Source of the DNA: Paracoccaceae bacterium
GTDB lineage: Bacteria; Pseudomonadota; Alphaproteobacteria; Rhodobacterales; Rhodobacteraceae
Direction: 5' to 3'
Length of the DNA stretch: 64,000 nucleotides
Assembly (NCBI GenBank): GCA_013214575.1
Contig: JABSSD010000002.1
Span: 62,001 to 126,000, forward strand
In this document: positions 21,914-48,766 of the stretch, one piece after another
Position numbering within the stretch: position 1 is the first letter of the stretch
How the letters are laid out: every line of letters begins with the position of its first letter
The notes under the pieces: model-generated
What the model was told of the DNA's origin: nothing
Databases searched by the model: none
What the model saw: the letters and a program-made list of their open reading frames with translations, nothing else
Position numbers and translations under genes: made by a program

Positions 21914-21999
21914 GCGGTCGTGGCGGAATGGTAGACGCGCAGCGTTGAGGTCGCTGTGGGGTAACACCCGTGGAAGTTCGAGTCTTCTCGACCGCACCA
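21914..21999 (+). tRNA. tRNA-Leu (anticodon GAG)
   Basis: A class II tRNA with a 7-bp acceptor stem GCGGTCG/CGACCGC, discriminator A and encoded CCA. The anticodon arm CAGCG-TTGAGGT-CGCTG reads GAG. A long variable arm precedes a T-arm with TTCGAGT. It is the integration target of the tandem elements that follow; its 3' end is restored by each insertion. Confidence 0.96.
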
Positions 22000-22002
22000 T
22001 TG
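21978..22002 (+). repeat. Attachment site 1 (tRNA-Leu 3' end)
   Basis: The last 22 bases of the tRNA gene plus three more form a 25-base sequence containing GAGTCTTCTCGACCGCACCA. It is found again unchanged at 47509-47533 and, for 18 bases, at 61082-61099. Confidence 0.85.
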
Positions 22003-22123: not shown

Positions 22124-23806
22124 GTGGAGAAGAAGGTAAAAGGCGCGCGCAGAATCGGGCAGACATGGCATTACAATATCCGCGTTTCAAAGCGGCTGTC
22201 TGATGCCTATGACCTCTGCCATGCCTTCTCCAGCTACAAAGGTGGGTTCATTCGAGGAACCATGCGGACCAAGTGTCCAGATGAGGCCGAGCGCAATGTC
22301 AGGGCCGTTCTTGCGAAATTGGACCAGATGGCGGCTAAACTGGATTCCATTTCTTCTCGGATCAAATCGTTTGGTGAGCTGAGTGAAGTGGAGCAGGGCA
22401 GGCTGGGGGACGATCTAGACGCTCGTATTGCCAAACTACCTCATGACCTAAAGAAGTTGTTGAAGGGCGAAGGTGGTGTTTGGAAGGCGGGCCAGAAGCT
22501 AAAACAGTTCAAAACCGAAGCTGCATTCCTAGAGGCCGGGGCAGGTTCCGAGTACGAAATTATGGAAGCACTCGGCAAAGAGTACGACCCAGAAGATCGC
22601 GATGATGACGAAGCGCAGGAGCGCTTTGACATAGAACGCGCGCAGCAGAAGGCAGGCAAATACGAGAAAGCACTGACTGCCGCTGGTGTGATTGAGCTAT
22701 CCGCTAATGCGGTCATGGGTTTTCGCTCCTTGATGGACAAACTCTGCAACGCCAAGGGGTACGTTCATTCTGTCAAGGCAAAGAACAAGACCCGGGGGCA
22801 GTATGAATATGCGGTACGTCGGTTTGTAGAGTATCATGGCGACCTGCCGATTTCAGAGTTGACCCGAAAGCACCTGTCAGATTTCAGCATGGACTTTCTG
22901 AAGCTGCCAGTATCGTCACGAAAGGATATCCGTCCCTTGGCATTTTGGGAAGCTGTTCGGGCAGCAGACCGGGAAGGTTTACCACGCGCGTCAATCAGGA
23001 CACGTGACCAAAATTTGATCTTGTTGAAATCTGTACTGGCCTTCGCGTTTAAGGAGGGTGATCGATTGGGCGTTGACCCATGGGCTGGTTATGAGCCGAC
23101 TGTGGCGAAGCAGAAGGTCAGTGCGGTGCTGGAGAAACACCGGCATGTGTTTAGTCGCCACGAAGTGCAGGCCATAATTGCGTTTACCAGCAAGACCCGT
23201 GACCCGAACACGATTGATTATTGGGGGCCGCTCTTTGGAGTGTACTATGGGTTGCGATTGGAGGAGATTTCTCAGGTTCGCACGGTGGATCTACCAAATG
23301 AAGAAGGTTTCCTTTGCGTCACTATTACAGACGCAGGTGAACTTCAGACGGTGAAGAACTCAAACTCGTTTCGTACTATTCCCATCCATCAAGATTTGAT
23401 CGGGCTAGGCTTTGGCGAATTTGTGGAGCGCCGTAGCAAGGCGAGCGGTGATATGCTCTTCATGGAAGCCGATCGTTGGCGCGGCTCGTTACATGAAATC
23501 AAACCAGATGGTCAAGGTCGGCACGGTACAATGTATGGGTCTCGTTTCGCAGACAAAGAATATGGTGTATTGGCAAAACTCAATATCATCGGGCACAAAG
23601 CTGGATTCCACAGCTTTCGGCATGCGTGGACGGACCTAGCGCGCAATGCTGGTATTAATCCGGAACACAGACGTGCATTGGCGGGCCGGGACAGCGAGGC
23701 CGAAAGCGAAGGTGTGCGAACTGACAACACTGAAAACAGGTATGGTCATGGGTTTGCTATTGCTGAGTTAGCTAAAAGCTTGAACCAACTGAAGCCTCTA
23801 GGCTGA
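22124..23806 (+). CDS. Tyrosine recombinase (integrase) of element A
   Basis: A site-specific recombinase of about 560 residues. The C-terminal catalytic domain shows the first arginine in YYGLRLEEISQV, the HxxR box in GFHSFRHAW and a tyrosine in ENRYGHGF. The long N-terminal half includes a helical SAM-like core-binding domain (QYEYAVRRFVEYHGDLPISEL). The track ORF begins in the arm-site region; the GTG at 22124 (EKKVKGARRIGQTWHYNIRV) is more likely, which puts the arm sites in the 5' leader so that integrase binding could repress its own gene. It acts on the tRNA-Leu 3' end. Confidence 0.85.
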   Translation: MEKKVKGARRIGQTWHYNIRVSKRLSDAYDLCHAFSSYKGGFIRGTMRTKCPDEAERNVRAVLAKLDQMAAKLDSISSRIKSFGELSEVEQGRLGDDLDARIAKLPHDLKKLLKGEGGVWKAGQKLKQFKTEAAFLEAGAGSEYEIMEALGKEYDPEDRDDDEAQERFDIERAQQKAGKYEKALTAAGVIELSANAVMGFRSLMDKLCNAKGYVHSVKAKNKTRGQYEYAVRRFVEYHGDLPISELTRKHLSDFSMDFLKLPVSSRKDIRPLAFWEAVRAADREGLPRASIRTRDQNLILLKSVLAFAFKEGDRLGVDPWAGYEPTVAKQKVSAVLEKHRHVFSRHEVQAIIAFTSKTRDPNTIDYWGPLFGVYYGLRLEEISQVRTVDLPNEEGFLCVTITDAGELQTVKNSNSFRTIPIHQDLIGLGFGEFVERRSKASGDMLFMEADRWRGSLHEIKPDGQGRHGTMYGSRFADKEYGVLAKLNIIGHKAGFHSFRHAWTDLARNAGINPEHRRALAGRDSEAESEGVRTDNTENRYGHGFAIAELAKSLNQLKPLG

Positions 23807-24920: not shown

Positions 24921-27900
24921 ATGTCACTTGGTTTTAAAAACCTACCCCCTGTGGAAGCCTCCACAACCACACCGATCCAACCTCGCGCGCTGGGCGCCGA
25001 TACGTCAGATCAGATCGAAACCCCGTTGTGTGTTCCAAATGTCACCAACGGCCTGACTGCTGATCGGAACGACACGGTCATCGACGTGTCAGAAGCATTC
25101 ATCAGAGAACAGGCGCACAACGCCCGAGACAATGCTGGTGACATGGCCGAAGACGCCGCTGGCGCTGCGCACAAGGCTCAGGCTGCGTCAGAGGGCGCGG
25201 ACAGTGATGTTGCGCCCAATAGCGCACATGGCACCCAACACACTGGCTTCGAACCTTACAAGTTCAATGACGCCGTGGTTCTTGGTGACCTAGAAAGCGT
25301 GGCGTGTGATGCGCTATTGAACAAGACAATTGTTGTTGCTGGATCCCAGTACGCGCCACGCATCAGCGCGGACAAATGGGTTCGGCGGGAATGGACTTGG
25401 GCCGAGTTGTTCGCCACTACATCCCTTCATCCGATCTCACCAAACAAAGATGGTTCCGCAATATTCTTTGCGGAAACCGAGCTGACCGGCAAGACACAAA
25501 CTGGCAAGGTCGGCGCTGATATCATCACCACTGAATTTGTCTACAAGCTGAAAGACAAGGTGCTCCGCATCCATGCCGTTGCAATCGATGTTGACGGTAC
25601 TGACAAAGTGGGTCGGCTGGTAGCTGTTCTGCAGGAGATGGGGTTGTTGGCTCTGGTCTACACGACACATTCCCATGCCCTCAAAAAGACGGCTACTGGG
25701 GATCGGTTCCGGATAATTGTTCCCTTGGACGAACCGTTCGACTACGCACTTTATAGCAACCACAGAGAGGCGGAGAACGCGTGGAAGAGCCGTTATGTTG
25801 GGTTTGTCGAGCAGCTCGGCCTGACTGACTTTGACGTCGCTGGAATGCGCCCCACCCAGCTTATGTACATGCCACGCCGTGCATCAAAGGATGCGGAGTT
25901 CCAGCATTACATTATCGCAGGTCGTGGGTTGCGCGTTGAAGACATGCCCAAAGGTGATGCGTCGATATATTGCAAGGGGAGTGGATCACGCTCCGGCAAA
26001 ACATACGATGATGCGGACACCGGCAAGCCAGCTTTTCTGTCTGACGGTTTTGATGTCCGGGCATGGTTTGACGACTGGGGGCAACATTTCCTGCTGGAGG
26101 ATCTCATAGACTGGATCGGATGGGACAACTACGGCAGTGCAGGAGATGGTTTCAACGTCGTCTGTCCCAATGACGCGGCCCACTCAAATGCCGGTGAACA
26201 GGACACCGCAACGTGGGCTTGCGAAGGCGATCCGGACAATGACGCCGGGTTTGTCATCACCTGCCACCATGACCATTGTGCTCAGCTTTGCACATGGGAT
26301 TTCACCCGCATGATCGAGGAGAACTGTGCGCTGCCTGATGACTGCGAGACGTTGTCGGACCTGTTATGCGCTGACTACCTGTATCCGAATGACATCGGGG
26401 CTGAGGTCTTCAAGGAAGACTACATCGATTTCACACCGGTGATTGAGCATCTCAAGACACCTGAAGCCGTCAAACGGGCATTCAAAAACGTGTCTGAGAG
26501 AGCTTCTGAAGATGCCTATGCGGCCCTCTATGCAGGGGTTCAGAAAAGTGGGTCACGGCAAAAAGCACAGGTAACGCTTGATGAGCTGATGAGAGGCGTT
26601 GGCGCGTTCAACGCAAATGATCTGAAGCGGCTGAAAAAGCGCGGTGAAGACATGCTGCAGGCCGACAGGGCCGCTCAGGTGGCGGAGCAGGCAGCCGAAC
26701 GAGTGGTGCAGAACAAGGAAGCCCTCAGCCGGACTGATCTTGCGAACCCGTCCATGGACGTGGCTGAACCTTTGGGCGACACCCTCGAGGAGGCACTGGC
26801 GACACTTGGGAACCGTTTTGCCCTATGTGACTTGGATGGCAAATTCCGCGTTGTACGGAAGCCTGACCTTTCGGCGCTAAACGCCGACTACAAGGGCAGC
26901 ACGATCATTGTCAGTACCAAGGAAGATTTCATCGCGCTGCATGATGATCGTGTTATCCCGAACGTCGATGGTCCGGGGTTCACCCATCCGGCGAAAGAGT
27001 TTCTTTGGACTGAGAAACGGAAGTCAGGCATCGTTTTTGCCCCGCATCCCGTCACTGCCGGACCGAACGATTTCAATATGTACTCCGGGCGGACACTGAA
27101 AAGTAAGGCCGGGGATTGGTCGACCATCAAGGACTTCATTTTCCGCATCGTCTGTAAGAAGGACCCGATGAAATATGCGTTCACCCTGTTGTGGATGGCG
27201 CACATGGTCCAGTATCCGGGGATCAAGCCCGGCACTGCGATTATCTGCCGTGGCGCAGGCGGATGCGGTAAGAGCACCTTCGGTGAGATATTGGCCAAGC
27301 TGGTTTCTCCACATGTGAAAATCCTCGAAAAGGAGGAGCATGTCGTTGGGAGATTTGCCGGAGAACACCTGAGTAAGTGTATCCTAGCAGTCGTGACTGA
27401 GGCTGTGTTCGGCGGGAACCCCAAGGTGGCCAGCGAGCTGAAGTCGATGGTGACGTCCAGCACGGTACAGGCCGAGGCCAAGGGAATGGCTGTTGTGACC
27501 CTCCCATCTTATCAGCGGACATACTTCGACTCCAACGGCGACCTTGTTGTTCTGATCGAAGGCAACGGCTCTGAGCGGCGGTATTTCGTGATGGAAATCT
27601 CGAAGGCTGAAAAAGGCCAGAAGGACTACTTCAAGAATCTGTATGCAGCGATTGAAGGTGACGAAATGGCGGCCCTGTTGGACTATCTGGAATCCTATAA
27701 TCCGGCGGATCATGGGCAGGACTGGAGCGCCTTGCGCTGCGCACCCCACACAGCAGAGCGCGACCTGATGGCCTACCACACGCTGCGTGCCCCTGTGCGC
27801 CGGTTGCTGGAAGTGATCCGTGATGGTGAAGTCACCCTTGGCCAACGTGATGTGGCGGAGGATTTCACATTCGTCGATGGGGTCAACATCAGAGTCCCTC

Positions 27901-28181
27901 GGCCCTTGTTCCGAGAGTATATCCGGTCAGTGGGCAATTCCAACAGGGCTGCTGATGGGGACATCGGCGCAATGATGCTCCAGCTCTTCAAGGTCGAAGA
28001 GGTGGATGTTGGAGGCGACCGCATGCCGCTCGTGCGTGAGCGGCGAGGAAAGGTTGGCTCGGATGCCAATGGATGGTTCTTTGAGTTCCCACCCCGGGAT
28101 GTCTTGTTGCCGCTGCTCGTGATTGATCCAAATGAGGGACAACCGGAAAAGGTTGCGGGGCCTGAGCCAGTTTCAGATTGA
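24921..28181 (+). CDS. Primase-helicase (DUF5906 / NrS-1 polymerase-like, SF3 helicase)
   Basis: A 1086-residue replication protein. The C-terminal part (about 730-930) is a superfamily 3-type helicase with Walker A RGAGGCGKSTFGEIL, Walker B-like CILAVVTEAVFG and the DUF5906 pattern AEAKG and IEGNGSERRYFVME. The N-terminal third has an archaeo-eukaryotic-primase-like stretch (IDVDGTDKVGRL, then GDRFRIIVPLDEP). A Cys/His cluster (CHHDHCAQLC) in the middle may bind zinc. It probably unwinds and primes the excised element. ATG with AGGAG seven to eight bases upstream. It is followed by a terminator-like hairpin and a repeat region that may be its origin. Confidence 0.82.
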   Translation: MSLGFKNLPPVEASTTTPIQPRALGADTSDQIETPLCVPNVTNGLTADRNDTVIDVSEAFIREQAHNARDNAGDMAEDAAGAAHKAQAASEGADSDVAPNSAHGTQHTGFEPYKFNDAVVLGDLESVACDALLNKTIVVAGSQYAPRISADKWVRREWTWAELFATTSLHPISPNKDGSAIFFAETELTGKTQTGKVGADIITTEFVYKLKDKVLRIHAVAIDVDGTDKVGRLVAVLQEMGLLALVYTTHSHALKKTATGDRFRIIVPLDEPFDYALYSNHREAENAWKSRYVGFVEQLGLTDFDVAGMRPTQLMYMPRRASKDAEFQHYIIAGRGLRVEDMPKGDASIYCKGSGSRSGKTYDDADTGKPAFLSDGFDVRAWFDDWGQHFLLEDLIDWIGWDNYGSAGDGFNVVCPNDAAHSNAGEQDTATWACEGDPDNDAGFVITCHHDHCAQLCTWDFTRMIEENCALPDDCETLSDLLCADYLYPNDIGAEVFKEDYIDFTPVIEHLKTPEAVKRAFKNVSERASEDAYAALYAGVQKSGSRQKAQVTLDELMRGVGAFNANDLKRLKKRGEDMLQADRAAQVAEQAAERVVQNKEALSRTDLANPSMDVAEPLGDTLEEALATLGNRFALCDLDGKFRVVRKPDLSALNADYKGSTIIVSTKEDFIALHDDRVIPNVDGPGFTHPAKEFLWTEKRKSGIVFAPHPVTAGPNDFNMYSGRTLKSKAGDWSTIKDFIFRIVCKKDPMKYAFTLLWMAHMVQYPGIKPGTAIICRGAGGCGKSTFGEILAKLVSPHVKILEKEEHVVGRFAGEHLSKCILAVVTEAVFGGNPKVASELKSMVTSSTVQAEAKGMAVVTLPSYQRTYFDSNGDLVVLIEGNGSERRYFVMEISKAEKGQKDYFKNLYAAIEGDEMAALLDYLESYNPADHGQDWSALRCAPHTAERDLMAYHTLRAPVRRLLEVIRDGEVTLGQRDVAEDFTFVDGVNIRVPRPLFREYIRSVGNSNRAADGDIGAMMLQLFKVEEVDVGGDRMPLVRERRGKVGSDANGWFFEFPPRDVLLPLLVIDPNEGQPEKVAGPEPVSD

Positions 28182-32000: not shown

Positions 32001-32007
32001 CTTAACG

Positions 32008-33744: not shown

Positions 33745-34300
33745 TTTCATACAGTTCATTTGTTAATGTTCTGACCACTTTTGAAGGCGATCCCATGGAA
33801 AGAGTTCTTGGAGGTATATCTTCGCGTATCAAGGAATGAGCTGCAATCACAGAACTCTTCGAAATGGTCACGCCATCCAAAATCGTTACTCTAGCGCCTA
33901 GCCATACATTTTGATCAATGTGTATTCCAAGTGCTGATTCTCCCAGAAAGCGAAAGGCTTCATCCCCATCAAGGATATGCGAAGCAGCATTTACTAGTAT
34001 GTATGGGCCAAAAATACAGTTATCACCGATGAAAACGCCTCCGTGTGCCGCAACAATGGAATATTCGCCAATCGAAACGCGATGCCCGATACGGATATTG
34101 TTCCCGTAGCCATGTAGGAGGCAACCCGCCTTGATTTTTGATCTAGAACCAATGTGGATGAGACCAGTCTCCCCATTTCCAGTATTCAACACGACTCCTC
34201 GCTCTATGCTTGCGAAAGGACCAATGACTATCCTGCCGTTTCCTCGTATCTCTAAATCTGGTGAGATCAGCGCTTCGGGCGATATTTCAATTGTCGGCAA
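33728..34300 (-). CDS. Left-handed beta-helix acyltransferase
   Basis: 190 residues made of hexapeptide repeats (IRIGHRVSIGEYSIVAAHGGVFIGDNCIFGP) with the usual C-terminal block VWLGARVTILDGVTISKSSVIAAHSLI and GSPSKVVR. It belongs to the LbH acetyltransferase group (NeuD/WbbJ/Maa-like) that acetylates sugars or sugar nucleotides. A catalytic histidine may be the one in VNAASHILDGD. First gene of a minus-strand pair with nagA. The acceptor sugar is not deducible. Confidence 0.82.
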   Translation of the reverse strand: MPTIEISPEALISPDLEIRGNGRIVIGPFASIERGVVLNTGNGETGLIHIGSRSKIKAGCLLHGYGNNIRIGHRVSIGEYSIVAAHGGVFIGDNCIFGPYILVNAASHILDGDEAFRFLGESALGIHIDQNVWLGARVTILDGVTISKSSVIAAHSLIREDIPPRTLSMGSPSKVVRTLTNELYENDDFD

Positions 34301-35242
34301 TACGTGCTCTCCACATCACCATAAAACGCCACAAGGAAAACAATCGACGATCCGAGAGGCAATGTCGGTTTTGACATGGATGATGGTAACGATTTTGCTA
34401 GCGCAGGCAAACCCTGAAATCTAGCGACGATTGAGACAGTCAAAGGGCGCGGAAATCTGTCCCATAAAATGAAAGATGCGATAACAACGTTCCTTGGTAA
34501 TGACGCTGACCAAGGAGACAGCAAGGCTCACATTAATTATCTGGGGGAGTGGGACACAAAAACTTGATGAACGCAGGGAACGGACGAGCCTGCAACGTGT
34601 TCGCCAAAGAGTCTTCCCGCCGATGAACCGCATCAAAGACATTCCTGCGAGATATGGAAGTGTTTGACCCAGCTTAAGAACCCAAGCGGGGTCAAATCAG
34701 GCGGTCCGAGAAGTTGTGACAAAAGTATGCATGATACAAGCGAAGTGCGATGTAACGCGCAAATGCGCTTCCACAGCGCCTGTCCATGCCTCCAGCGTAC
34801 TTTTCGTGCGAAGTTAGCATTGGCTTTGGACTAATCGCAGGCCACACTAATTACGACATCATCACATCACATTTACACCCGCTAACGCTGGACAGCGCAT
34901 CACTGCCCGCCTTGACAAAGGTAACTGGTTTTTTTGACCAGCGCGTACTTTTTCTTTTGACGCCCAACTAATATGTTTTGATGTTTGGCCATTTGCATGG
35001 GGCGTGCGCTTCTTGCGAAGATCCAAGTGCTCCATCATAGCTCATATATCTCGATAGTGCCTTTGTATCCCGCTAACGCGGGTATCACTAATCCACCACA
35101 TAGGGCGGCATCAACCATCAGCACCATGTATGGCAGGTCGAACACCCTCTAATTCGCCAGCCTTGTTCGGATCACCGTAAGGTGAGCGAAACGTGTCCGA
35201 ACTGTGTACACTCTCACGAGGCACTCGAAACATGTCCATTAG
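34301..35242. other. Non-coding stretch before the resolvase
   Basis: About 940 bp with only short unconvincing ORFs. It is probably a junction scar where cargo has been exchanged; no transposase remnant could be identified. The last 80 bp contain repeated GTCCGA words that belong to the resolvase site. Confidence 0.4.
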
Positions 35243-35277
35243 TGTCCGATTAGACTTGCAGAATCACTTATCGGACA
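35243..35277. promoter_or_regulatory. Resolvase binding site (res-like inverted repeat)
   Basis: TGTCCGAT and ATCGGACA face each other across 19 bp immediately upstream of the serine recombinase gene. Additional GTCCGA/TCGGAC words lie at about 35194-35205 and 35301-35310. This multi-site layout matches res sites of Tn3-type resolvases, which also control the resolvase promoter. Confidence 0.7.
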
Positions 35278-35321
35278 GGTAGGGTTTATGAGACAGTCAA
35301 ATCGGACAGAAAGGACAGATT

Positions 35322-35891
35322 ATGGGCGAAATGATCGGATATGCGCGGGTCTCATCACGTGGACAGGACCTGACCATCCAGACCGACGCCCTGACGGGCG
35401 CTGGCGTTCATCCGGATCATCTTTATCAAGAGAAGGTCAGTGGAACCAAACGTGTGGGTCGTGCAGCGCTGGAAGACTTGCTGGCGCGTGGTATCCGCAA
35501 AGGTGATACGGTTGTCGTAACCCGGTTGGACCGGCTGGCACGCTCTACCCGTGATCTTCACAACATAGCCCACACCTTGAGTGAGAAAGGAGTCGGCCTC
35601 CGGGTTCTCGAACAGAACATCGACACTACCACACCAGAGGGCCGCATGTTCTTTACTATGCTCTCAGCAGTGGCCGAATTTGAAACCGAGATACGAAAAT
35701 CAAGGCAGCGGGAAGGCATCGACGCAGCGCTGGCCAAAGGTCCTGACAGCCCGTTCAAGGGCAGGCCTGCGACAATCGATGCAGAAAGGGTTGCTGGCCT
35801 GCGTGGGCACGGCATGACGCCCACTAACATTGCCAAGGAGCTGGGCATCGCCCGCTCATCGGTCTATCGGTACTTGGGACGGCAAGGTTAG
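35322..35891 (+). CDS. Serine recombinase (resolvase/invertase)
   Basis: 189 residues. The catalytic serine is in GYARVSSRGQDL, and arginines follow in TRLDRLARSTRDL. The long E-helix precedes a C-terminal helix-turn-helix (GMTPTNIAKELGIARSSVYRYL). It is complete in length for a small resolvase. AAGGA lies before the ATG. No transposase accompanies it. Three 3'-end fragments of a different resolvase are spread through the next 8 kb, so site-specific recombination has shaped this half of element A. Confidence 0.93.
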   Translation: MGEMIGYARVSSRGQDLTIQTDALTGAGVHPDHLYQEKVSGTKRVGRAALEDLLARGIRKGDTVVVTRLDRLARSTRDLHNIAHTLSEKGVGLRVLEQNIDTTTPEGRMFFTMLSAVAEFETEIRKSRQREGIDAALAKGPDSPFKGRPATIDAERVAGLRGHGMTPTNIAKELGIARSSVYRYLGRQG

Positions 35892-36295: not shown

Positions 36296-36506
36296 ATGTG
36301 CCTCTTTGGTTGTGTGGTGCAAACATATCTTCCAACTACTGTAACGCAACTTGAGAACCTAACTGGAAATCAGCTTTGTCGCGAAATATAACCAGTTCAC
36401 TCGCCCTAGTTGGCATTAATCTCAAGAGCAAGATTGATTATGAAGAATTCCCCGCAGACGCCAGTCGTAAGTGGTCTCAGCGCGGCGTCCCTAACCGAAG
36501 CTAGCA

Positions 36507-36735
36507 GTGCATCGCCCCGTCAAAGCATCGGCTGACTCCGACCGAAAATATCGTGGCAAGAAACCATCATATGACCGCACGGTATTTGAATCGGTTCAAA
36601 CATTGTTGGCTCAGAATGCCTGCACGGTCAGCCAGACCGCACGAGAAGCAGGGTTGTCCCGTCAGGCAGTTCTGCGCATCCGTGACACGCAGACGCTGCT
36701 GAGACTGCCCTGTGCAGGTGGGGGATGTGAAGAAA
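36507..36735 (+). pseudogene. 3' fragment of a serine resolvase gene
   Basis: The frame reads RKYRGKKPSYDRTVFESVQ followed by a helix-turn-helix (TAREAGLSRQAVLRIRDT), the usual C-terminal DNA-binding end of a resolvase. The catalytic domain is missing. One base is missing after RIRDT relative to the other two copies, which read on as RDTPxAAEAALCRWGM and stop. The 162-aa track ORF therefore runs through a frameshift into non-coding sequence. Confidence 0.65.
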
Positions 36736-36820
36736 AGCGGAGGGACCCAAAGGGGGTATCCCCCTCTCATTATCTGACGTGTGCAGGTGCCGCGCCACAG
36801 TGCAAGTGCAACTTTACCCT
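36620..36820 (+). repeat. Resolvase-end repeat, copy 1
   Basis: About 200 bp covering the resolvase HTH codons and about 85 bp beyond the stop. Closely similar copies lie at 37951-38110 and 43545-43755. Shared words include CTGCCCTGTGCAGGTGGGG and CCACAGTGCAAGTGCAACT. Confidence 0.8.
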
Positions 36821-36961
36821 GACAATCGCCAAACAGGAATTGGACCAGCACATGAAAGACGTCAACCCGATCGCTAGCGCGATTCCATCTGCAGCGGAAA
36901 TTGGCGCTCGCAGAACTGCAGAATCCGACGTATCAAGGGCTGAAAAATTGAGGGGTGCTAA

Positions 36962-37930
36962 GTGTTTTTTCGATACCGGATTATTCAAAATGTAGCGTCT
37001 ATTCTGCTTGTTTCATTTTTCGCCTCTCATTTGAGCGCTCAAACATCAGACGAAATCGGAGCTGGTGACGTGGCAAAACTCTTTCTAGAAAAAGCAATTC
37101 TTGGGGAATCATTTTATGCGAAGTCTCTCATAACCAACGAGGATAGAAACCGAAAATACCCATTCGGAGATTTGACGCCCATGGTTAAGCTCCAACCTAT
37201 TTTCCCATCTCTGTGGGACGCAGAAGTTATCTCCGTTGTTGTCGACGGAGATGAAGCCGAAGCACACATCTCAATTGCTTTTCCGGAAATAGAAATTCTA
37301 GCGGCAGAGCGTTATGGGGCGATCAATATAGATCAAGCATTCTTGGATTCGTACAGAAACAAGGATGTCCCAATGTCCAGCCGGGATTTTTCTGTCAATT
37401 TGGTGCTCGATGAAGAGGGAAGTTGGAGTGTATCAACTGGTTCCGAACGCTATGAATGGAACCGAGAGAAACTTCGATTCTCGAGAGCCAACAGTACGTC
37501 TCCAAGCTTAGCGGAGGCGATGGCACTTCGCGACGATCTGTTGAAGAGATTTCCAACGCGTTCTGACGAGATTGAAAGCCTTGTGAATCCGTTGCTTGCA
37601 ACTGCGACCGTCGTGGCGAATGCGGTGTTTACCGATGTCACGATTGACTCGGACAGCCCCAAATGGGTTCAAGGCACCTACGACGTTGCTTTCACTTTTG
37701 CGAACCCAACTGAGTACACAGTTGAGTTTCTAAAAGTCCTGATCATTTTGCGTGATGCAAAGGGTTTGATTGTTGAACGTGATGATCTGCAGGTATTCTA
37801 TTCTGGTAGTCTGCCCCAAGGGCTACGCCCCGGTGAGCGCCTAAGAGAGAGGCATCCGCTAAGTGCACAAAACCCAGAAATTGACGCAGTATCCGCCGAA
37901 ATTTCGATTTTGGAAGTTAAAGCGCGTTAA
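36962..37930 (+). CDS. Putative exported protein of unknown function
   Basis: 322 residues from a GTG with GAGGGG upstream. A signal peptide (hydrophobic VASILLVSFFASHLSAQ) implies export. The mature part has a helical N-terminal region and a C-terminal beta-rich segment (KWVQGTYDVAFTFANPTEYTVEFLKVLIILRDAKG) that resembles an immunoglobulin-like/FxLYD-type domain. It is the only gene between resolvase-end repeats 1 and 2, so it looks like a self-contained cargo unit. AT-rich codons differ from the backbone. Confidence 0.68.
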   Translation: MFFRYRIIQNVASILLVSFFASHLSAQTSDEIGAGDVAKLFLEKAILGESFYAKSLITNEDRNRKYPFGDLTPMVKLQPIFPSLWDAEVISVVVDGDEAEAHISIAFPEIEILAAERYGAINIDQAFLDSYRNKDVPMSSRDFSVNLVLDEEGSWSVSTGSERYEWNREKLRFSRANSTSPSLAEAMALRDDLLKRFPTRSDEIESLVNPLLATATVVANAVFTDVTIDSDSPKWVQGTYDVAFTFANPTEYTVEFLKVLIILRDAKGLIVERDDLQVFYSGSLPQGLRPGERLRERHPLSAQNPEIDAVSAEISILEVKAR

Positions 37931-37950
37931 GTTGCTCAAGTGGACCTGAT

Positions 37951-38110
37951 CTGCGCATCCGTGACACGCCAGTCGCTGCTGAGGCTGCCCTGTGCAGGTG
38001 GGGCATGTAACAAAGGGTAGGAGGGGACCCAGAGGGGGGTATTCCCCTCTCTTCGTCCGAATTTCTCAGGTGCCGCGCCACAGTGCAAGTGCAACTTTAC
38101 CCTTGTATAT
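37951..38110 (+). repeat. Resolvase-end repeat, copy 2
   Basis: Starts at the RIRDT codons and reads RDTPVAAEAALCRWGM to a TAA. It then shares the GAGGGG...CCCCTC hairpin and the TGCAAGTGCAACTTTACC block with the other copies. The similarity to copy 3 continues weakly to about 38200. Confidence 0.8.
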
Positions 38111-38669
38111 TGAAGAGAAGGGACACGGCGGGAAACAGGGTACCCCAAGTTTTAGAACCAATATGGCTTTTGGAAATTCTCAAAAATTCTTGCCCAACAG
38201 AATACCGTTTGGCGCACAACGCTAGGAAATCCTTCCACTAGCGGTCGCAACCCAACGGACCATGCTGGGCGATCTCAATTTCTCCGCCGGTCCATTCCCT
38301 TGTTATGACACAATGGATGGAGTGAACCCATTTGGGGAAGTTTCATATCCTATTGCCCGCTGTTTTCCCAGTCACAGTAGCGGAACCCTATGACGGATGT
38401 TAATCAAGCCACTCAACTTTGGATCGTTTTCACCTTGCGCAAAGCAGAGGATGAAAAAATGCTTGATTTCCCAACCAAGTGGTGGTTCCGTAGGGTGTCC
38501 GTGGAGATCACTGTATGCGCCCCGGATAACTATCGGCTTTGCGAATCCTAGGTCCATTCGGATCGCAAGCCACTGAGATCAAACAGAATCTTCTATAGTT
38601 CAGGTTGTCTCGTTTTGCCAAGGACCTCGCTTCTAGAGAATAACAACTGCCTAGAGGAGATCTTATTCT
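38111..38669. other. Spacer between repeat copy 2 and the next gene
   Basis: About 560 bp without a supported gene; the 61-aa minus-strand ORF has no visible domain. GAGGAG lies before the next start at 38670. Confidence 0.4.
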
Positions 38670-39386
38670 ATGAAGAAATCAACATATGTAGTGACAACGA
38701 CCGAAGCGTTGTCAAATGCAGCGACGTCTGTTCTGGCGCGTTTTGAGGCGACTGAGGGGAAGCTGTCAAAGAACGGCGTGCTAGATTGTTTCGCAAAAGC
38801 AATAATGGGCGATCGGGCTAGTTGGGGAGGCGTTGTCCAGAAGGAAATCGTGCATGGAAATGGTGTCCCACCAGTAAATTTCTTAGAGAAACTTGAAGCG
38901 GGCAACAATGAAGAGGGTGCCGCCTCTGAAAGGGTCCTAGCAGATCCACCGATTGGCTCCCCGGTCCGCTACATTGTAGGTGATATGAAGATTACGGAAT
39001 ACGATGTTCAGGGCCTTAAAGTCGGGTTTGAGCTGCTAGGTGGGAGGCGAGAGGATCCAAGGGAGGACGGTGATCCCCTTTATGGCTTATTCCGACCTCT
39101 ATTGTCCGCCGGGGCAAATCGTAACATTTTTAAAACGGACAATTATGCTGCCAATGAAGGGGAGCTGCTAAGGGGTCTGCTTCGTGCTGTTTTGTGGCGA
39201 GAAAATGAAGACATAATGCGTTCAGCTTTGGATATCTGGGTTGCAAGCCGGTTTCCTGTCGAGGGGTTTGAGGATCGCGATCTTAGACTTTTCCAGATTC
39301 ATGAGTGTTTGGTGAGACACGGTATTATTGAGAGGGTTCTATATGCTACTAGCGAAGGGAGTTTAGATGCTCCGGCCGCTGAGTAA
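38670..39386 (+). CDS. Hypothetical protein upstream of Gabija
   Basis: 238 residues, soluble. The N-terminal segment (LSKNGVLDCFAKAIMGDRASWGGV) recalls the short helical module that precedes glyoxalase-like domains in some mobile-element proteins, but the rest shows no known fold to me. It converges on the Gabija genes and shares their repeat-bounded segment. It could be an accessory or control gene for that system, or an independent passenger. Confidence 0.62.
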   Translation: MKKSTYVVTTTEALSNAATSVLARFEATEGKLSKNGVLDCFAKAIMGDRASWGGVVQKEIVHGNGVPPVNFLEKLEAGNNEEGAASERVLADPPIGSPVRYIVGDMKITEYDVQGLKVGFELLGGRREDPREDGDPLYGLFRPLLSAGANRNIFKTDNYAANEGELLRGLLRAVLWRENEDIMRSALDIWVASRFPVEGFEDRDLRLFQIHECLVRHGIIERVLYATSEGSLDAPAAE

Positions 39387-39417
39387 AGCTTAGGATTATT
39401 TCAGCGCGGTGGTTTTT

Positions 39418-39448
39418 CCAAGCCCCGCTGTGCTACGGCGGGACTTGG
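39418..39448. terminator. Hairpin between the convergent genes
   Basis: CCAAGCCCCGC and GGCGGGACTTGG form an 11-bp imperfect stem between the hypothetical gene and gajB. No good T-run follows on either strand, so termination is only a suggestion. Confidence 0.35.
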
Positions 39449-39612
39449 TTGCATCAAAATCAGAGGGTGGCTAGAAGTCGAGCACTCCCATTCTTGACAT
39501 AGCCTCATTCTCTCGAGTGTTGGTTGCAAGATTCTGTAGAGGGGCAATATCTGATATTTGGCTGCGCATTACGACGCCACCCGGGAAGGCGCATCATATC
39601 CGAAGAAAAGAC

Positions 39613-41526
39613 TTAAGTCACCGTTGGGATGCCGATCTCGGCTAAGAAGCGCGAGGGCTGCTGAAACCGTAGGGTTTTCCAAGGCATCATTCTTTGTTTT
39701 GGGTAACTCATGAAGATCCAACGTTTTGCACGTGTCACGGCTACGAAAGCAGTGTTTCTTTCTTCTTCGATTTTTTGGGGAGTCGTAGCTCGATAATCTG
39801 GAAACACTCCTTCACACATCCCAATGAGAAACACGATGTCTTTCTCTAGGCCTTTCATTGTGTGGACAGTACTCAACATTAGCCCATCTGATGTCTTTTG
39901 GGTATTCAGTTTACCCAGAGCCGCAGCGTTCCGAAAGGCACCTAGCGAACTTCCCAGCCCTAACTTGCGGAAGTTTACCCATGATGCTGAAAACTCCTCA
40001 AGTTCTTCAAGGCTTCTTTCAATGTCTGACTGAATGCCATTCTCGTGAACCTTGTCGGCTAATGCTTCGAGTTCGGCAGAGAAAGTAGACACAAGTTTGC
40101 GGATGTTAGGTTTCTCTTTGTCGAGACCGTCAATTGCTGTCAGCAATTCGCTGAGAATATGATCTATACCGCTTTCCCGGTTCTTCAGGCTATCAGAAAA
40201 CTGCTGCAGGAGCGCACTGTCCCCCCAAGTGCTAGGCGGCTGTATGCTTAAAGTATGGCACAGCTTTCTTCCGTCCACCCAATCTTTCGGATTGAGATTA
40301 AACCGAATTGCGTAGTCTAGTGTTTTTCCGAACCTTGAGGTTGGGTCTTTCGCCCGCTCGCCTTGCCTAAGGTGAAAATCGATTTCTGCATCCTCGAGCG
40401 CCTTCTCTAGCGTAGAGAAAACGAAACGGTTTCTGGCAATAATGACCATCTTATCGGTAGAAATCTTGCCTTCGATTTCTGGGTGATTGCCAATCTCGAG
40501 GAGCCTGTTTATCGAAGAGACAATCCATGCAGCTTCCTGATGTTCGTCGCCATGCCCATACACTTTTGCTACTCCGTCAAGGGCATAGTCGTGCACTTTC
40601 TGGGAGTTGGGGCGGAGTTTGTTCGCGATATGCACTACGGCCTTTGTGCTTCTGAAATTTTCTGTGAGCCGGAACTGCGCGGGTTTGAAATCTGATACGA
40701 AGTGATCACACATGTAAGTTGCTGACGAACCATTGAAGCCGTAGATCATTTGATCGGGATCACCGACCATCATGACACTCTTGATAGTGTCTCCAGCAAG
40801 CGCCTTAACAAATTCGTACTGGATTTTGTTCAGGTCTTGGGCTTCATCGACGCAGATATGTTTGAATTTGGCGCGATAGATATCCCCGACCCAGTCTTGA
40901 GTCGAAAGGATGCGATGGGCAAACTTGAGAATATCGTCGTAGTCAATTCCACCACTGTTGATCAAAGCACTCTGATAGTCTGTGAATACCCGCCAAACAT
41001 CTGGAGCATCGGGAAAATTATCGGCGATATCCTCTTCCGACAACATGTCCCGTTTGATGGAAGAAAAGCCATCCATGTAGTTCTGAAGGTTGCGTTCACG
41101 GCTTCGTTTTTCTTTGGCGTCGTCGACGTCGAGATAGTCGTCGATATTCACGCCATCAGAACGCAGGGCTTCGAGAAAGACCTCCATGCGGTCTTTGTCT
41201 TTTTCGTAAATCTGGAATTCTGGTGGCAGTCCAATAGTGTGACCGTATTGCTCCAGAATACGTTGTGCGATTGAGTGAACAGTGCCAATCCATATCCGTT
41301 CAGCAGGCGCGCCGAGAAGATCTAGCCGAGTTGACATCTCTTCCGCCGCTTTGTTTGTAAATGTAAGGCCGATCACGCCCACTTTTTTTGTGTTGGACAG
41401 GATATGATTGATCCGTTCCGTTAGAACGCGTGTTTTGCCGGACCCTGCCGATGCGAGGACCTGTACCGCAGTGTCCGTCGTATATTCCACTACGGCGCGT
41501 TGAGCATCAGAGAGTTGAGTATTCAT
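39613..41526 (-). CDS. gajB: Gabija system UvrD-like helicase GajB
   Basis: A 637-residue superfamily 1A helicase: Walker A ASAGSGKTRVLTERI, motif II CVDEAQDLNKIQ, motif III GDPDQMIYGFNGS, motif IV TENFRST, motif V STVHTMKGLEKDIVFL and motif VI FVAVTRAKRW. It works with GajA, which nicks or degrades invader DNA when nucleotides are depleted; GajB is thought to sense DNA ends or translocate. Its ATG overlaps the gajA stop as ATGA, which indicates coupled translation. It is longer than the Bacillus protein (about 490 residues), as is common for proteobacterial forms. Confidence 0.88.
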   Translation of the reverse strand: MNTQLSDAQRAVVEYTTDTAVQVLASAGSGKTRVLTERINHILSNTKKVGVIGLTFTNKAAEEMSTRLDLLGAPAERIWIGTVHSIAQRILEQYGHTIGLPPEFQIYEKDKDRMEVFLEALRSDGVNIDDYLDVDDAKEKRSRERNLQNYMDGFSSIKRDMLSEEDIADNFPDAPDVWRVFTDYQSALINSGGIDYDDILKFAHRILSTQDWVGDIYRAKFKHICVDEAQDLNKIQYEFVKALAGDTIKSVMMVGDPDQMIYGFNGSSATYMCDHFVSDFKPAQFRLTENFRSTKAVVHIANKLRPNSQKVHDYALDGVAKVYGHGDEHQEAAWIVSSINRLLEIGNHPEIEGKISTDKMVIIARNRFVFSTLEKALEDAEIDFHLRQGERAKDPTSRFGKTLDYAIRFNLNPKDWVDGRKLCHTLSIQPPSTWGDSALLQQFSDSLKNRESGIDHILSELLTAIDGLDKEKPNIRKLVSTFSAELEALADKVHENGIQSDIERSLEELEEFSASWVNFRKLGLGSSLGAFRNAAALGKLNTQKTSDGLMLSTVHTMKGLEKDIVFLIGMCEGVFPDYRATTPQKIEEERNTAFVAVTRAKRWIFMSYPKQRMMPWKTLRFQQPSRFLAEIGIPTVT

Positions 41527-43307
41527 ATCAGCCAACTTTCCACTTTTTTGAAGGCCTCTTGGAGGGCGGTTGGGACCAATTCTTCTCTGGTTCGGCCAAA
41601 TTTGTTCTCGGCGATCACGTCCCCAAGGATAGATGAGTAGCCCGTCTTCACGCTTCGCATTTTTTCCAAGAGCTGGTCTGCCGTCATTTTGTCCAGTTCA
41701 CTTTTTTTGGCGGCCAAGTAATCTCGGTGGGTGCTCACTTCTTTTGCGATTCTGAGAAAGGCCTCTTTCACCTCTTCGAGAAGCCCCATCGCGTGTATGA
41801 TCTCAGCTTCAAAATCGTTCGGATCGCTTAGGTACTGGATTGCAAACCAGTCAGCAGATCGCTTTAGTGGTGTTTCAGCCTCCATCTTGGTGAGCTGGCC
41901 TTCAACAATGGTTTTCGTGGAAACGCCGTTCTTTGTGTCGTTGTCGCTGATTATCGCAATCGGTATTCCAAGACTTCCGGCCAGTTTGACATAAGGGCCG
42001 TAGTTCCTACCGTTAACCGCAACCATACTGACGCCTTTTGCAAAGGCAGAATCGCCAAACCAAACTTCAAACATATCTGGAACGAGCTGCTCTTCGGTTT
42101 GCCCTTCAAACAATATCAACGCTTTAGCGAAAAGCGTTTCCCCTTTATGTCTCATAACCTCCCGGTGGAGGGTCTTTAGCTCGCTTGGCGCAAGGCCATC
42201 CATTAGTTGAAAGCACACAGTGTGCCCCCCACGTGTTGATAAGCACCGCAAATTTGGCAATTCACACATTGCTGCCAAGAAGGGAGAGTGGGTGCTAACG
42301 ATGGTTTGTCCATGAACACTCTGCATTTGCTGAAAAAGGAAACGTTGAGCATTTGGATGTAGGTGGGCTTCAGGCTCCTCAGCCGCAAGGATAGGGTGAA
42401 AAGGTTCCGCTTCCGACTTATGGTGCTCTGCCATCAGCTCGGTGAACGCTTTCACTGCCAGCATGGAGGCCCAACTCCGCGTCCCCATCCCGTGGTACTC
42501 CATTGAAAAAGAGCTAGCACTCGAATTGCCAAAGTGTACGCTGAAGTTCTTTGATAAATCGCGTAGTTTTTTTGGGAATGGCGTGACCTCTACGATACCG
42601 GAGCTGCCAAAAGATTCGTTGAGAGCTGACAGATGTTCTTTCAAGCGGGTAAGTGGAACACTCTTGGCGACAGCCTCATCGTTGATGCCTGCAATCATTT
42701 TTTCTAGCTTGGCGACCTCTTTGCTATCATACTGAACTTGCGAAAGAACTCGGCCAACAAAAGATGACTTTTCATTCAGTTCGTGATGGATATCACGCTG
42801 CGCGTCTATGGAGATGAACGGCACCAAGTCCGAATGTGTTGAGAGTTTCTGCGATGCCGATGGTGTAATAGAGGTCCAATTCGAAAAATCCACCCATTCC
42901 TGCAACCAAAAGCGCTCAATCAAAAAGCCAGTCTTTGCTGGGTGGGGTTTGGCACTGGTGCGGAGGCCGAAAAATTGATTGCCGTCAGCATCCGCTTGAA
43001 TTTTGTCACCAAATTCTATTGCCCAATCGTCATCAAATTTCTTTTCGCTTTTCCCCACAACGTCTAACGGAACGATACGAACGTCTATGAGTATTTTTTC
43101 CGTCCGTTTGTCGGCATCATCGATGTTGAAATCTTCATCTGACAAACGTCGTGCGTAGTCACCGAGGGCCAGTTGCATGGCTTTGATAACCGATGTCTTA
43201 CCACAGTTGTTTGGGCCAATTAGGACCGTGGTCCGCGGGAGGTTCATCTCGAAATTTCGAATCCCACGAAACCCAAAAATTCTAACTTTGTCGATTAGGA
43301 TGGGCAA
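41523..43307 (-). CDS. gajA: Gabija system ATPase-nuclease GajA
   Basis: A 594-residue OLD-family nuclease. An ABC-type ATPase domain comes first (GFRGIRNFEMNL, Walker A IGPNNCGKTS, Walker B AAEEPEAHLHPNAQR). A TOPRIM nuclease domain follows, with its acidic glutamate in LILFEGQTEEQL and the DxD in ISDNDTKNG. Fold order and length match GajA. It sits directly upstream of gajB in one minus-strand operon. The pair lies between resolvase-end repeats 2 and 3, as a discrete defence module of element A. Confidence 0.9.
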   Translation of the reverse strand: MPILIDKVRIFGFRGIRNFEMNLPRTTVLIGPNNCGKTSVIKAMQLALGDYARRLSDEDFNIDDADKRTEKILIDVRIVPLDVVGKSEKKFDDDWAIEFGDKIQADADGNQFFGLRTSAKPHPAKTGFLIERFWLQEWVDFSNWTSITPSASQKLSTHSDLVPFISIDAQRDIHHELNEKSSFVGRVLSQVQYDSKEVAKLEKMIAGINDEAVAKSVPLTRLKEHLSALNESFGSSGIVEVTPFPKKLRDLSKNFSVHFGNSSASSFSMEYHGMGTRSWASMLAVKAFTELMAEHHKSEAEPFHPILAAEEPEAHLHPNAQRFLFQQMQSVHGQTIVSTHSPFLAAMCELPNLRCLSTRGGHTVCFQLMDGLAPSELKTLHREVMRHKGETLFAKALILFEGQTEEQLVPDMFEVWFGDSAFAKGVSMVAVNGRNYGPYVKLAGSLGIPIAIISDNDTKNGVSTKTIVEGQLTKMEAETPLKRSADWFAIQYLSDPNDFEAEIIHAMGLLEEVKEAFLRIAKEVSTHRDYLAAKKSELDKMTADQLLEKMRSVKTGYSSILGDVIAENKFGRTREELVPTALQEAFKKVESWLI

Positions 43308-43544
43308 AAGTCAGTCTCCTTATCTTGGAGTAACAAGCGCAATGGGTGTATGTGTAAGTGTTTGAAACAAAAGTTAAAGTACTAAGGTGGGAACTGGTTG
43401 GATTTTCTGATGTTAAAGGAGTGAGGCCGGGAGTAGAAAATCGACACTGGAAATTGATAGTGTACCCATAATCTCCCAAATTTACACACGCTAACGGACG
43501 AAAAATGGCCAATACTGCGGATCAGTGTTCATTCGATCGTCTCC

Positions 43545-43755
43545 CTGCACGGTCTTCCATCGCGCGAGAAACAGGGTTGTCCCGTCTGGCGATTCTGCTC
43601 ATCCGCGACACGCCAGAAGCCGCTGAGGCTGCCCTGTGCAGGTGGGGGATGTGAAGAAAAGCGGAGGGACCCAAAAGGGGTATTCCCCTCTCGTTATCTC
43701 ACGCGAGCAGATGCTACGCCACAGTGCAAGTGCAACTATCCCCTTGTATATTAAG
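43545..43755 (+). repeat. Resolvase-end repeat, copy 3
   Basis: Reads ARETGLSRLAILLIRDTPEA then AEAALCRWGM and a TGA, so the frame of this copy is intact up to the stop. The downstream block (GAAAAGCGGAGGGACCCAAA...CCCCTCTCGTTATCTCACG) is nearly identical to copy 1. It lies between gajA and the DUF262 gene. Confidence 0.8.
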
Positions 43756-44149
43756 GGGAAAACCCCCTTCGAGTAGTGGGGTGCCCCCATGATTCAGAAA
43801 AACCAGACCTTTGAAAAATTTTGAAAATCACTTAACATTCTTGCATAGCCCAAGCTTCCATGGCCGTGGTGTTAGCGCAGTCACACACTCTCCTAATTGA
43901 TCGGGCATAGCGACCGTTAGGGCAGGCGGCCAGTGACTCAAAATTGGCATGTGAGGGCGACAACCCAGTACTTCATTAGGAAAAAGTTTTGTGTGGGGTC
44001 GACACGTTGTCGGTGGTGGGCATCTCATGCTAGCATGCAACCAAAGCGATAATGGGGGTGATGCCCTCGCGATCTTCGAACACATAGTCAGATAGAGATG
44101 TATCAGTTTTCCCTCTTTTATTTAGAGCAAGCGAGCGGGTGATTTTCCA
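43756..44149. other. Spacer before the GmrSD-like gene
   Basis: About 390 bp without a supported gene. AT-rich and carrying T-tracts near 44110-44120; presumably it contains the promoter of the DUF262 gene. Confidence 0.4.
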
Positions 44150-46544: not shown

Positions 46545-47249
46545 ATGAAGATTGTGATCTGGAATTGCATGAACGGCATGGGGGACCCCAAACAGATCGA
46601 GTACTTCAAAGATCTTAGAGCAGATTTGGCTATCATTCCTGAATTGAAGCAGAAAAATCTCGATCAGCTTCAACCCAACAATGCTGTTTGGGTAACCAAC
46701 AACCACACTAACAAAACGCCCAAAGGATTGGGAGTTTTGAGCTTTGGCAGCGTGGAGTTGTTTGAGTTAGATCGAGACATAGAGATGGAACTTTATGTTC
46801 CGGTCAAAGTGAGGAGTCCTTCCTTTGATTTCAATTTGTTAGCAGTGTGGAATTTCTACCATGCGTGCAAACAAGGTCGGTTCAGAGGTGCTAAGGGTGA
46901 AGAGGCATTGGAATGGGCCGCCATAAACCGATACACTCGACAGCTCGATGAGCCATGCCTAGTTGGTGGCGATTGGAACTTTGGACCGACCTTTTCCAAG
47001 CCAGCGTTTCTTAGGATGTGTAGCATGTTTAAGGAGGCTGGTTACATGAGCCTCTACCATGAACACTATGGCCTCGATTGCTCCGAGACGGAGCATTCAA
47101 CATTTCGCTCTCCTTCAAAGCATTACCATCATCTTGACCATTTTTTTGGCACAAGATGTTTTGTTAACAAAATGTCCGAGTTCGACATCCCCAGCGTAGA
47201 CGATGCTATTCTTTCTGACCATTCACCAGTCGTGTTGACTGTTGATTAG
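46545..47249 (+). CDS. Endonuclease/exonuclease/phosphatase (EEP) family protein
   Basis: 234 residues with the EEP order of motifs: IVIWNCMNGM at the N-terminus, an acidic residue in AIIPELKQ, GGDWNFGP and the C-terminal SDHSPVVL. These supply the Mg2+ and catalytic Asp/His residues of exonuclease III/DNase I-like enzymes. It is shorter than ExoIII. It reads in the same direction as the DUF262-HNH-HEPN gene, 115 bp behind it, so the two may be one defence unit. Last gene before the right end of element A. Confidence 0.75.
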   Translation: MKIVIWNCMNGMGDPKQIEYFKDLRADLAIIPELKQKNLDQLQPNNAVWVTNNHTNKTPKGLGVLSFGSVELFELDRDIEMELYVPVKVRSPSFDFNLLAVWNFYHACKQGRFRGAKGEEALEWAAINRYTRQLDEPCLVGGDWNFGPTFSKPAFLRMCSMFKEAGYMSLYHEHYGLDCSETEHSTFRSPSKHYHHLDHFFGTRCFVNKMSEFDIPSVDDAILSDHSPVVLTVD

Positions 47250-47508: not shown

Positions 47509-47533
47509 TCGAGTCTTCTCGACCGCACCATTG
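47509..47533 (+). repeat. Attachment site 2 (junction of elements A and B)
   Basis: 25 bases identical to the tRNA-Leu 3' end and its first flanking bases (GAGTCTTCTCGACCGCACCA within). Only the 3' end of the tRNA is present, so this is an att copy and not a second tRNA gene. Confidence 0.85.
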
Positions 47534-47585
47534 TCAAGGCCTAAGGCCTTGACGCATTGCATTTCTCTCGTTGACGCTAGTTACT

Positions 47586-47606
47586 AGCCCCACATCCAGC
47601 CCCACA
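47586..47606 (+). repeat. Left integrase arm sites of element B
   Basis: Two direct copies of AGCCCCACA, 12 bp apart. The same word occurs twice at 60947-60967 near the other end. Confidence 0.65.
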
Positions 47607-47610
47607 TTGG

Positions 47611-48328: not shown

Positions 48329-48766
48329 TGTGTTTCCTATGATCGTTATTTTCGCCTAGAGGCGGTATTCAGTATAATTCGGATCACACCCACCCTTAGT
48401 GCGGCCTGTTCATGACCGTAGATGCGTCAATTGGTGGTGGTGGTGGTGATGCAGCTCCATCGAGGAGCATTTGAAGTGCTATGGGGGCATAGCTTTTGGT
48501 TCCGCGAAAGCGGGGAGGTGTACTATAATCAATGGTGGCTTCCTTACTTTTTGGGCGTTTGGCCGGGATCGACTTGTGCAGTGTTAGTCTGCGATATTCG
48601 ATTTTTCCTTGAACGCTGCCGTTGATGTCTAAAGGCTAAATTGAGCGTGGAAGATCGGCAATCCGGCGAAATAAAATAGCTCAAAAATCACTGATAGTCG
48701 CCAATTCGGCCCTCGCAAGAATTGAAAAAGCTTGACAAGGATAGCAGGTCGGCAAAAGGCGAATTG

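What the first reader, a model, noticed from the sequence alone, without database searches (positions are those of the whole stretch)
36507..43755. Triplicated resolvase-end repeats separate the cargo blocks, including Gabija
Three copies of the last codons of a serine resolvase (RIRDTPxAAEAALCRWGM) plus about 85 bp of 3' flank sit at 36.6, 37.95 and 43.55 kb. They bracket an exported-protein gene and then the Gabija segment; the DUF262 gene follows the third. No catalytic domain is attached. This looks like repeated insertion or capture of modules beside a fixed resolvase end.
Basis: partly seen in the sequence, partly recalled or inferred. Interest (0 to 1): 0.72.

Follow-up and report, generated by a model that had tools for sequence, protein, structure and literature searches.

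The report
Leftover resolvase ends between defence genes
A bacterial DNA island inserted in a tRNA gene carries three leftover 3' ends of a DNA-rearranging (resolvase) gene, each followed by a different block of accessory or anti-virus genes, and related islands swap such cargo right at the end of the intact gene, so the leftovers are best read as scars of stepwise cargo build-up.

Summary
Three directly repeated 3' ends of a serine-resolvase gene (36503-36820, 37950-38119, 43496-43916) separate an exported-protein gene, a Gabija block and a GmrSD/DUF262 gene. None keeps a catalytic domain; copy 1 is also frameshifted. They lie in the cargo zone of a 25.5-kb integrative element in tRNA-Leu (attL 21978-22002, attR 47509-47533) with an integrase and a P4-type primase. 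In this genome the repeat occurs only here. Elsewhere it was found only in one congeneric genome, beside other cargo.

Full-length relatives sit in tRNA-integrated Rhodobacteraceae islands, often beside defence genes. What they share is a ~750-bp unit, res site plus gene, that ends 7-8 bases before the stop codon even between 93-99% identical copies. Islands of two genera share integrase (96%) and resolvase (99%) but carry unrelated cargo between them.

It is not a fixed attachment site. The window copies are 5'-truncated at different points, lack the upstream res site, and are as close to a copy in another genome as to each other. Best reading: accretion scars of successive resolvase-plus-cargo segments. 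The joining mechanism is inferred.

The parts
21914..21999 (+). tRNA-Leu(gag), integration target of the island
   Evidence: ARAGORN
21978..22002 (+). attL, 25-bp direct repeat TCGAGTCTTCTCGACCGCACCATTG at the tRNA 3' end
22154..23806 (+). tyrosine integrase of the island (longest ORF starts at 22007)
   Evidence: PHROG integrase E=2e-18; homologues at tRNA-Leu(gag) in G294, G351 and G327
24921..28181 (+). P4-type primase/helicase-like replication protein (DUF5906)
35193..35321 (+). upstream region of the intact resolvase with TGTCCGAT-type res motifs
35322..35891 (+). intact 189-aa serine resolvase of a different subfamily (res1)
   Evidence: Pfam Resolvase E=2.6e-40; homologue in G002:C36, 82% DNA identity
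36503..36820 (+). repeat copy 1: last ~60 codons of the second resolvase, frameshifted, plus 3' flank
36962..37930 (+). cargo: 322-aa exported-type protein, no family match
37950..38119 (+). repeat copy 2: last 19 codons plus 3' flank (weaker similarity to ~38188)
38670..39386 (+). cargo: 238-aa protein, no family match
39613..41535 (-). cargo: Gabija GajB (UvrD-type helicase)
   Evidence: PADLOC E=4.7e-259
41523..43307 (-). cargo: Gabija GajA (AAA ATPase/OLD TOPRIM)
   Evidence: PADLOC E=1.8e-216
43496..43916 (+). repeat copy 3: last ~50 codons plus long 3' flank shared with G002:C36
44150..46429 (+). cargo: 759-aa GmrSD_N (DUF262) protein
   Evidence: Pfam E=8.5e-31; PADLOC PDC-M55C/HEC-05
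46545..47249 (+). cargo: endonuclease/exonuclease/phosphatase-family protein
   Evidence: Pfam
47509..47533 (+). attR of the island

Best explanation
The repeats are 5'-truncated remnants of a small serine-resolvase gene, kept as scars at the left border of successive cargo segments in a tRNA-Leu integrative element. In relatives the unit is [res site - resolvase gene]: its left edge is res site I, its right edge lies at the last codons of the gene, and DNA on both sides is exchanged. In this lineage, segments consisting of a resolvase 3' end plus its downstream cargo were added one after another to the right part of the island. Each addition, or the deletions after it, removed the res site and catalytic domain but left the 3' end and the cargo. 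Losing res would also stop resolution from deleting the cargo between repeats. Shown: the repeats, the island, loss of res and catalytic domain, cargo exchange at intact resolvase ends in relatives, and equal distance of the copies to one in another genome. Inferred: the stepwise order, homologous or res-mediated joining followed by deletion, and selection against resolution.
For: Repeats occur only in this island in the 5.6-Mb genome. An exact-pattern scan of the 3' core over 84,980 species found real copies only in one congeneric MAG; the other five hits were unrelated by alignment. attL/attR were found for the window island, and relatives lie inside tRNA-integrated elements: Leu, Leu, Ala, Cys, Thr, Ser. 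342 pairwise comparisons of full-length relatives: right ends cluster within 10 nt of the stop codon (169) and left ends near -760 (136); near-identical pairs break at -7/-8 (99.0%, 93.4%, 94.8%). G360 carries the ~750-bp unit in two islands near different tRNAs, with nothing else shared over ~19.5 kb. G118/G407: cargo swap between shared integrase and resolvase. G004/G002 share a backbone up to about 70 bp before res site I, then carry different resolvase and cargo. res half-site TGTCCGTTA: 3.5 per kb upstream versus 0.27 per kb downstream of full-length genes. Recurrent 5'-truncated ends: G327 (integrase joined mid-gene to the resolvase end), G062 (full-length resolvase followed by the end of another), G002 twice, and G407:C3. 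Copies 1 and 3 and the G002 copy are equidistant.
Against: No intact ancestor of exactly these copies was found, so order and donors are unknown. The island's intact resolvase (res1) belongs to another subfamily and has another motif upstream, so it cannot simply be the latest round of the same process. The search used the C-terminal end, which favours finding 5'-truncated remnants; no 3'-truncated ones were seen, but those loci were chosen by C-terminal hits. G002:C36 is not a clean empty site, because copy 3 keeps ~70 bp more of the gene. Equal distances rest on 109 bp (SE about 3%). A duplication older than the split of the two genomes would look similar.
Confidence: 0.6

Rival explanations
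1. Site-specific cassette capture: the repeat is itself a recombination (attachment or res-type) site at which a recombinase inserts cargo modules.
For: Repeats are directly oriented and border modules. A conserved near-palindromic core (GTGCAAGTGCAACTTTACCCTTGTAT) occurs in all copies. Cargo changes at resolvase ends in relatives.
Against: res motifs of this family lie upstream of the gene and are absent from the repeats. Left junctions differ between copies. The core is not consistently better conserved than the coding end: 58-65% against 88-91% in the G002:C25 copy. The intact resolvase next door has TGTCCGAT sites.
Confidence: 0.12
2. Local triplication: one resolvase end was duplicated twice inside this island and the copies then diverged, with cargo inserted between them afterwards.
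For: All three copies have the same orientation within 7 kb and occur nowhere else in the genome.
Against: The copy in G002 is as close to copies 1 and 3 as they are to each other. The copies end at different points on both sides.
Confidence: 0.18
3. Tandem islands fused by deletion: several whole elements integrated in tandem at tRNA-Leu, and deletions between them left only the right part (resolvase end plus cargo) of each.
For: Tandem att cores at 21982, 47513 and 61082 show that tandem integration happens at this tRNA. G327 shows such a deletion scar, integrase fused to resolvase end, at the same tRNA-Leu. SGI1 islands without resolution persist as tandem arrays (PMC12217951).
Against: No att remnants lie between the cargo blocks, even with 3 mismatches allowed.
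Confidence: 0.3
4. Transposon or MITE ends: the repeats are ends of an insertion element that inserted three times.
For: Repeated non-coding flank with a short hairpin (GGGGGTATCCCCC).
Against: No copies elsewhere in the genome. No inverted terminal repeats were found around the modules by the repeat search. No transposase among the island ORFs tested.
Confidence: 0.04

Closest known systems
SGI1 genomic island resolution system (res/resolvase with the In104 cargo cluster; PMC12217951)
   Same: A resolvase gene in an integrative island; accessory cargo sits beside the resolvase and has separated it from its res site; loss of resolution lets tandem arrays persist.
   Different: In SGI1 one transposition-type insertion disrupts res and the resolvase gene stays whole. 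Here three 5'-truncated 3' ends, each followed by different cargo, lie in one island.
P2/P4 phage-satellite defence hotspots (PMC9122126)
   Same: tRNA-integrated element with integrase and P4-type primase whose cargo zone carries antiviral systems between conserved genes.
   Different: Hotspot borders there are phage or satellite genes next to cos; no resolvase is mentioned in the searched text. Here the border is a resolvase 3' end and it is repeated.
Module shuffling by res/resolvase systems and res-hunting transposons (Kholodii 2001 and Minakhina 1999, seen only as references)
   Same: Exchange borders coincide with res site I in the relatives (G004/G002 comparison; left edges near -760).
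   Different: A second sharp border at the 3' end of the gene; no Tn3 or Tn5053 transposase in the island ORFs examined; the window copies lack res.
Integrase-only defence islands of E. coli (PMC10121019)
   Same: Mobile islands with integrase or recombinase genes carrying defence systems, with an unclear route of mobilisation.
   Different: The paper does not mention resolvases in the searched text, and repeated gene ends as cargo borders were not found there.
Integron cassette arrays (own knowledge)
   Same: Successive cargo blocks separated by directly repeated sequence of ~100-200 bp.
   Different: No integron integrase among the island ORFs examined; repeats are remnants of a coding end with variable left borders.

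Membership tests
tRNA-integrated element (P4-satellite-like or integrative element) | Direct repeat of the tRNA 3' end on both sides (attL/attR) | tested here: met
   25-bp repeat 21978-22002 / 47509-47533
tRNA-integrated element (P4-satellite-like or integrative element) | Integrase next to attL | tested here: met
   PHROG integrase; homologues at the same tRNA in other genera
P4-like phage satellite | P4-type primase/helicase | tested here: met
   DUF5906 and DNA-primase PHROGs
P4-like phage satellite | Capsid-size/helper-control genes (Psu, Delta, Sid) and mobilisation by a helper phage | not tested
   No targeted search was made and mobilisation cannot be tested with these tools
Tn3-type resolution system (applied to the repeats) | Serine-recombinase catalytic domain | tested here: not met
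   Only the C-terminal end is present in all three copies
Tn3-type resolution system (applied to the repeats) | res site with subsites upstream of the gene | tested here: not met
   Upstream part missing in all copies; motif absent
Tn3-type resolution system (applied to the full-length relatives) | res site with subsites upstream of the gene | tested here: met
   TGTCCGTTA half-sites 13-fold enriched upstream; site I GGGTATA at about -750 in most
Tn3-family transposon | Tn3 transposase and terminal inverted repeats | tested here: not met
   No transposase among the island ORFs scanned; no inverted repeats bounding the modules
Insertion sequence or MITE | Multiple copies dispersed in the genome | tested here: not met
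   All copies in the genome lie in this one island
Site-specific cassette array (integron-like) | Same crossover point at every cargo border | tested here: not met
   Left borders of the three copies differ
Gabija | Adjacent gajA and gajB | tested here: met
   PADLOC E=1.8e-216 and 4.7e-259

The most novel reading that the evidence does not exclude
A ~750-bp [res site - resolvase gene] unit is itself a mobile module of alphaproteobacterial islands. Its two sharp edges, res site I on the left and the last codons (..R/K-W-G) on the right, are used again and again to exchange cargo, much of it antiviral, and the window shows three 'spent' right edges left after successive exchanges.
Probability: 0.3. 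Interest if true: 0.75.

Novelty: new variant of a known kind. Interest (0 to 1): 0.52.

Why it matters
How defence islands gain and swap whole systems is largely unknown. If a small resolvase gene is a standing exchange border, its 3' ends become landmarks that delimit cargo units, so new defence genes could be found by looking next to them. The order in which an island was assembled could then be read, and cargo exchange could be tested at the bench in harmless marine bacteria. If it is only accretion and deletion, the repeats still give a readable assembly history for one island.

Tried and rejected
1. Repeat core as a serine-recombinase crossover site: a near-palindrome is visible, but res motifs of the family lie upstream of the gene and core conservation is inconsistent. 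Rejected as the main reading.
2. Search for the repeat in plasmids, phages and viral contigs: nothing.
3. Pattern scan of 84,980 species: five of seven hits were chance or unrelated (Vibrio, Sphingomonadaceae, Amylibacter).
4. Repeated TTAACCCACA..TAG motif in the 3' flanks of relatives: present in few, dropped.
5. Full-length parent gene in the same genome: none.
6. Gabija travelling together with the repeats: the G036 homologue (61%) shares only gajA-gajB, no flanks.
7. More near-identical units in the genera of G407 and G360: only those already known.
8. One plasmid search used the wrong stretch of L039; it was not repeated with that sequence, and the G360 unit was searched instead.
Full report
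**Check of the observation.** Three direct repeats are present. They code for the C-terminal end of a serine resolvase (HTH_7 in copy 1) and continue ~130 bp past the stop codon in all three. Copy 1 keeps ~60 codons and has a 1-bp loss that shifts the frame. Copy 3 keeps ~50 codons and copy 2 nineteen. E-values of 3e-63 to 7e-33 exclude chance. No catalytic domain and no orphan N-terminal part of this resolvase lies in the window. The blocks between are as stated: a 322-aa exported-type protein; a 238-aa protein with Gabija (gajA/gajB confirmed); then the GmrSD_N/DUF262 gene.

**Where it lies.** The window is G000:C112:62001-126000. A tRNA-Leu(gag) at 21914-21999 and a 25-bp repeat of its 3' end at 47509-47533 bound a 25.5-kb element. 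It has an integrase and a P4-type primase. All three repeats are in its right-hand cargo zone. A third att core at 61082 shows a second element in tandem. An intact 189-aa resolvase (res1) lies at 35322-35891, with TGTCCGAT-type sites upstream.

**Copies elsewhere.** In this genome the repeat occurs only here. It was found in one congeneric genome, G002, twice. In G002:C36 it lies 24 bp behind a res1 homologue in an element at tRNA-Tyr, so res1 and the copy-3 type end are neighbours without the 7.7 kb that separates them in the window. Copy 3 keeps ~70 bp more of the gene, so this is not a clean empty site. In G002:C25 the repeat lies between a truncated phage-tail-like gene and a 658-aa gene, and the homologue of the window's attR region (att core 18/18) lies about 2.8 kb away. 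Over the shared 109 bp, copy 1-copy 3 identity is 92%, copy 1-G002 91% and copy 3-G002 89%. The window copies are therefore not a tight local family. An exact-pattern scan of the 3' core over 84,980 species found real matches only in the MAG NORP86, whose two contigs are the same sequences as G002's.

**Full-length relatives.** Twenty-two of the other 396 family genomes sampled have a relative, most of them full length. Two more genes were found in G004 and one in G002. Several sit in elements bounded by tRNA att repeats: Leu, Leu, Ala, Cys, Thr, Ser. Neighbouring genes include SIR2-HerA, type IIG restriction enzymes, a type I methylase, a DISARM-type methylase with an ATPase, a weak ThsB-like TIR protein and a type II methylase. 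No control set of other islands was scored, so enrichment is not claimed.

**Borders of the unit.** Among 342 pairwise comparisons the shared DNA ends within ten bases of the stop codon in 169 cases and begins near -760 in 136. For distant pairs this is what conservation of a gene would give. It is informative for close pairs: 99.0% identity ends at -7, 93.4% at -752 and -7, and 94.8% at -756 and -8. In G360 the unit occurs in two islands near different tRNAs with nothing else shared over ~19.5 kb. In G118 and G407 the flanking chromosome (~70-77%), integrase (95.7%) and resolvase (99.0%) correspond, while the cargo between integrase and resolvase 3' ends is 2.3 kb in one and 5.1 kb in the other, and unrelated. 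In G004 and G002 a 90% identical backbone stops ~70 bp before res site I and is followed by different resolvases (53% aa) and different cargo.

**Where the recombination site is.** TGTCCGTTA half-sites occur 3.5 times per kb upstream and 0.27 per kb downstream of full-length genes (the motif was chosen from two of the loci). Site I (GGGTATA) sits near -750 in most. The window copies have lost this side, so they cannot serve as res for their own family. I first suspected the conserved 28-bp 3' core as a crossover site and dropped it.

**Truncated ends recur.** In G327 the same integrase type at tRNA-Leu is joined mid-gene to a 95-aa resolvase end. In G062 a full-length resolvase is followed at +43 by the end of another, with that one's downstream DNA. 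In G407:C3 the first codons and res are gone. The search was made with the C-terminal end, so the bias towards 5' truncation is not proven.

**Most likely working.** Segments of 'resolvase end plus downstream cargo' were added in succession, and res with the catalytic part was lost each time (inferred). Loss of resolution is expected to stabilise such arrays: in SGI1, restoring the resolution system removes tandem copies (PMC12217951). Tandem integration followed by deletion at the same tRNA is a serious rival or a part of the process, since tandem att sites and a deletion scar are seen. No att remnants lie between the blocks.

**Comparison and verdict.** The nearest known cases are SGI1 (cargo beside a resolvase, res disrupted), P4/P2 hotspots (PMC9122126), integrase-only defence islands (PMC10121019) and resolvase-mediated module shuffling (known here only as a cited title).

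Noticed in passing
window 47513-61099: A second element in tandem at the same tRNA: att core repeated at 61082-61099, integrase-like ORF 59762-61009 (-), small serine recombinase 53359-53937 (-), replication-protein-like ORF 49961-51388.
   Followed up: partly
L031 / L095 (G327:C50), 1354-2750: Tyrosine integrase gene cut mid-gene and fused directly to a 95-aa resolvase C-terminal end beside tRNA-Leu(gag).
   Followed up: yes
L047 / L114 (G062:C19): Full-length resolvase followed 43 bp later by the C-terminal 101-aa remnant of a different resolvase that keeps its own downstream DNA.
   Followed up: partly
L128 (G407:C3) and L129 (G118:C7): Near-identical integrase and resolvase at corresponding chromosomal places in two genera with completely different cargo between their 3' ends.
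   Followed up: yes
L130 and L131 (G360:C2, C6): The same 750-bp res-resolvase unit (94.8%) in two unrelated islands near different tRNA genes of one genome.
   Followed up: yes
all full-length relatives, right edge: The terminal codons ..CGN TGG GGN resemble the left half of res site I (CCGTTAGGG); this may be a coding coincidence or a second recombination half-site.
   Followed up: no
window 28581-34300: Left cargo zone with a phage-related protein (PHROG 4776), TPR, NUDIX, histidine phosphatase, amidohydrolase and hexapeptide transferase genes; possibly a nucleotide or sugar modification block.
   Followed up: no
L012 10592-12568 (G002:C25): 658-aa protein next to the repeat with no Pfam or PADLOC match; possible unknown cargo or defence gene.
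   Followed up: no
L073 9325-17557 (G332:C23): Resolvase immediately followed by SIR2-HerA, a UvrD-like helicase and a TPR gene inside a tRNA-Ser element.
   Followed up: partly
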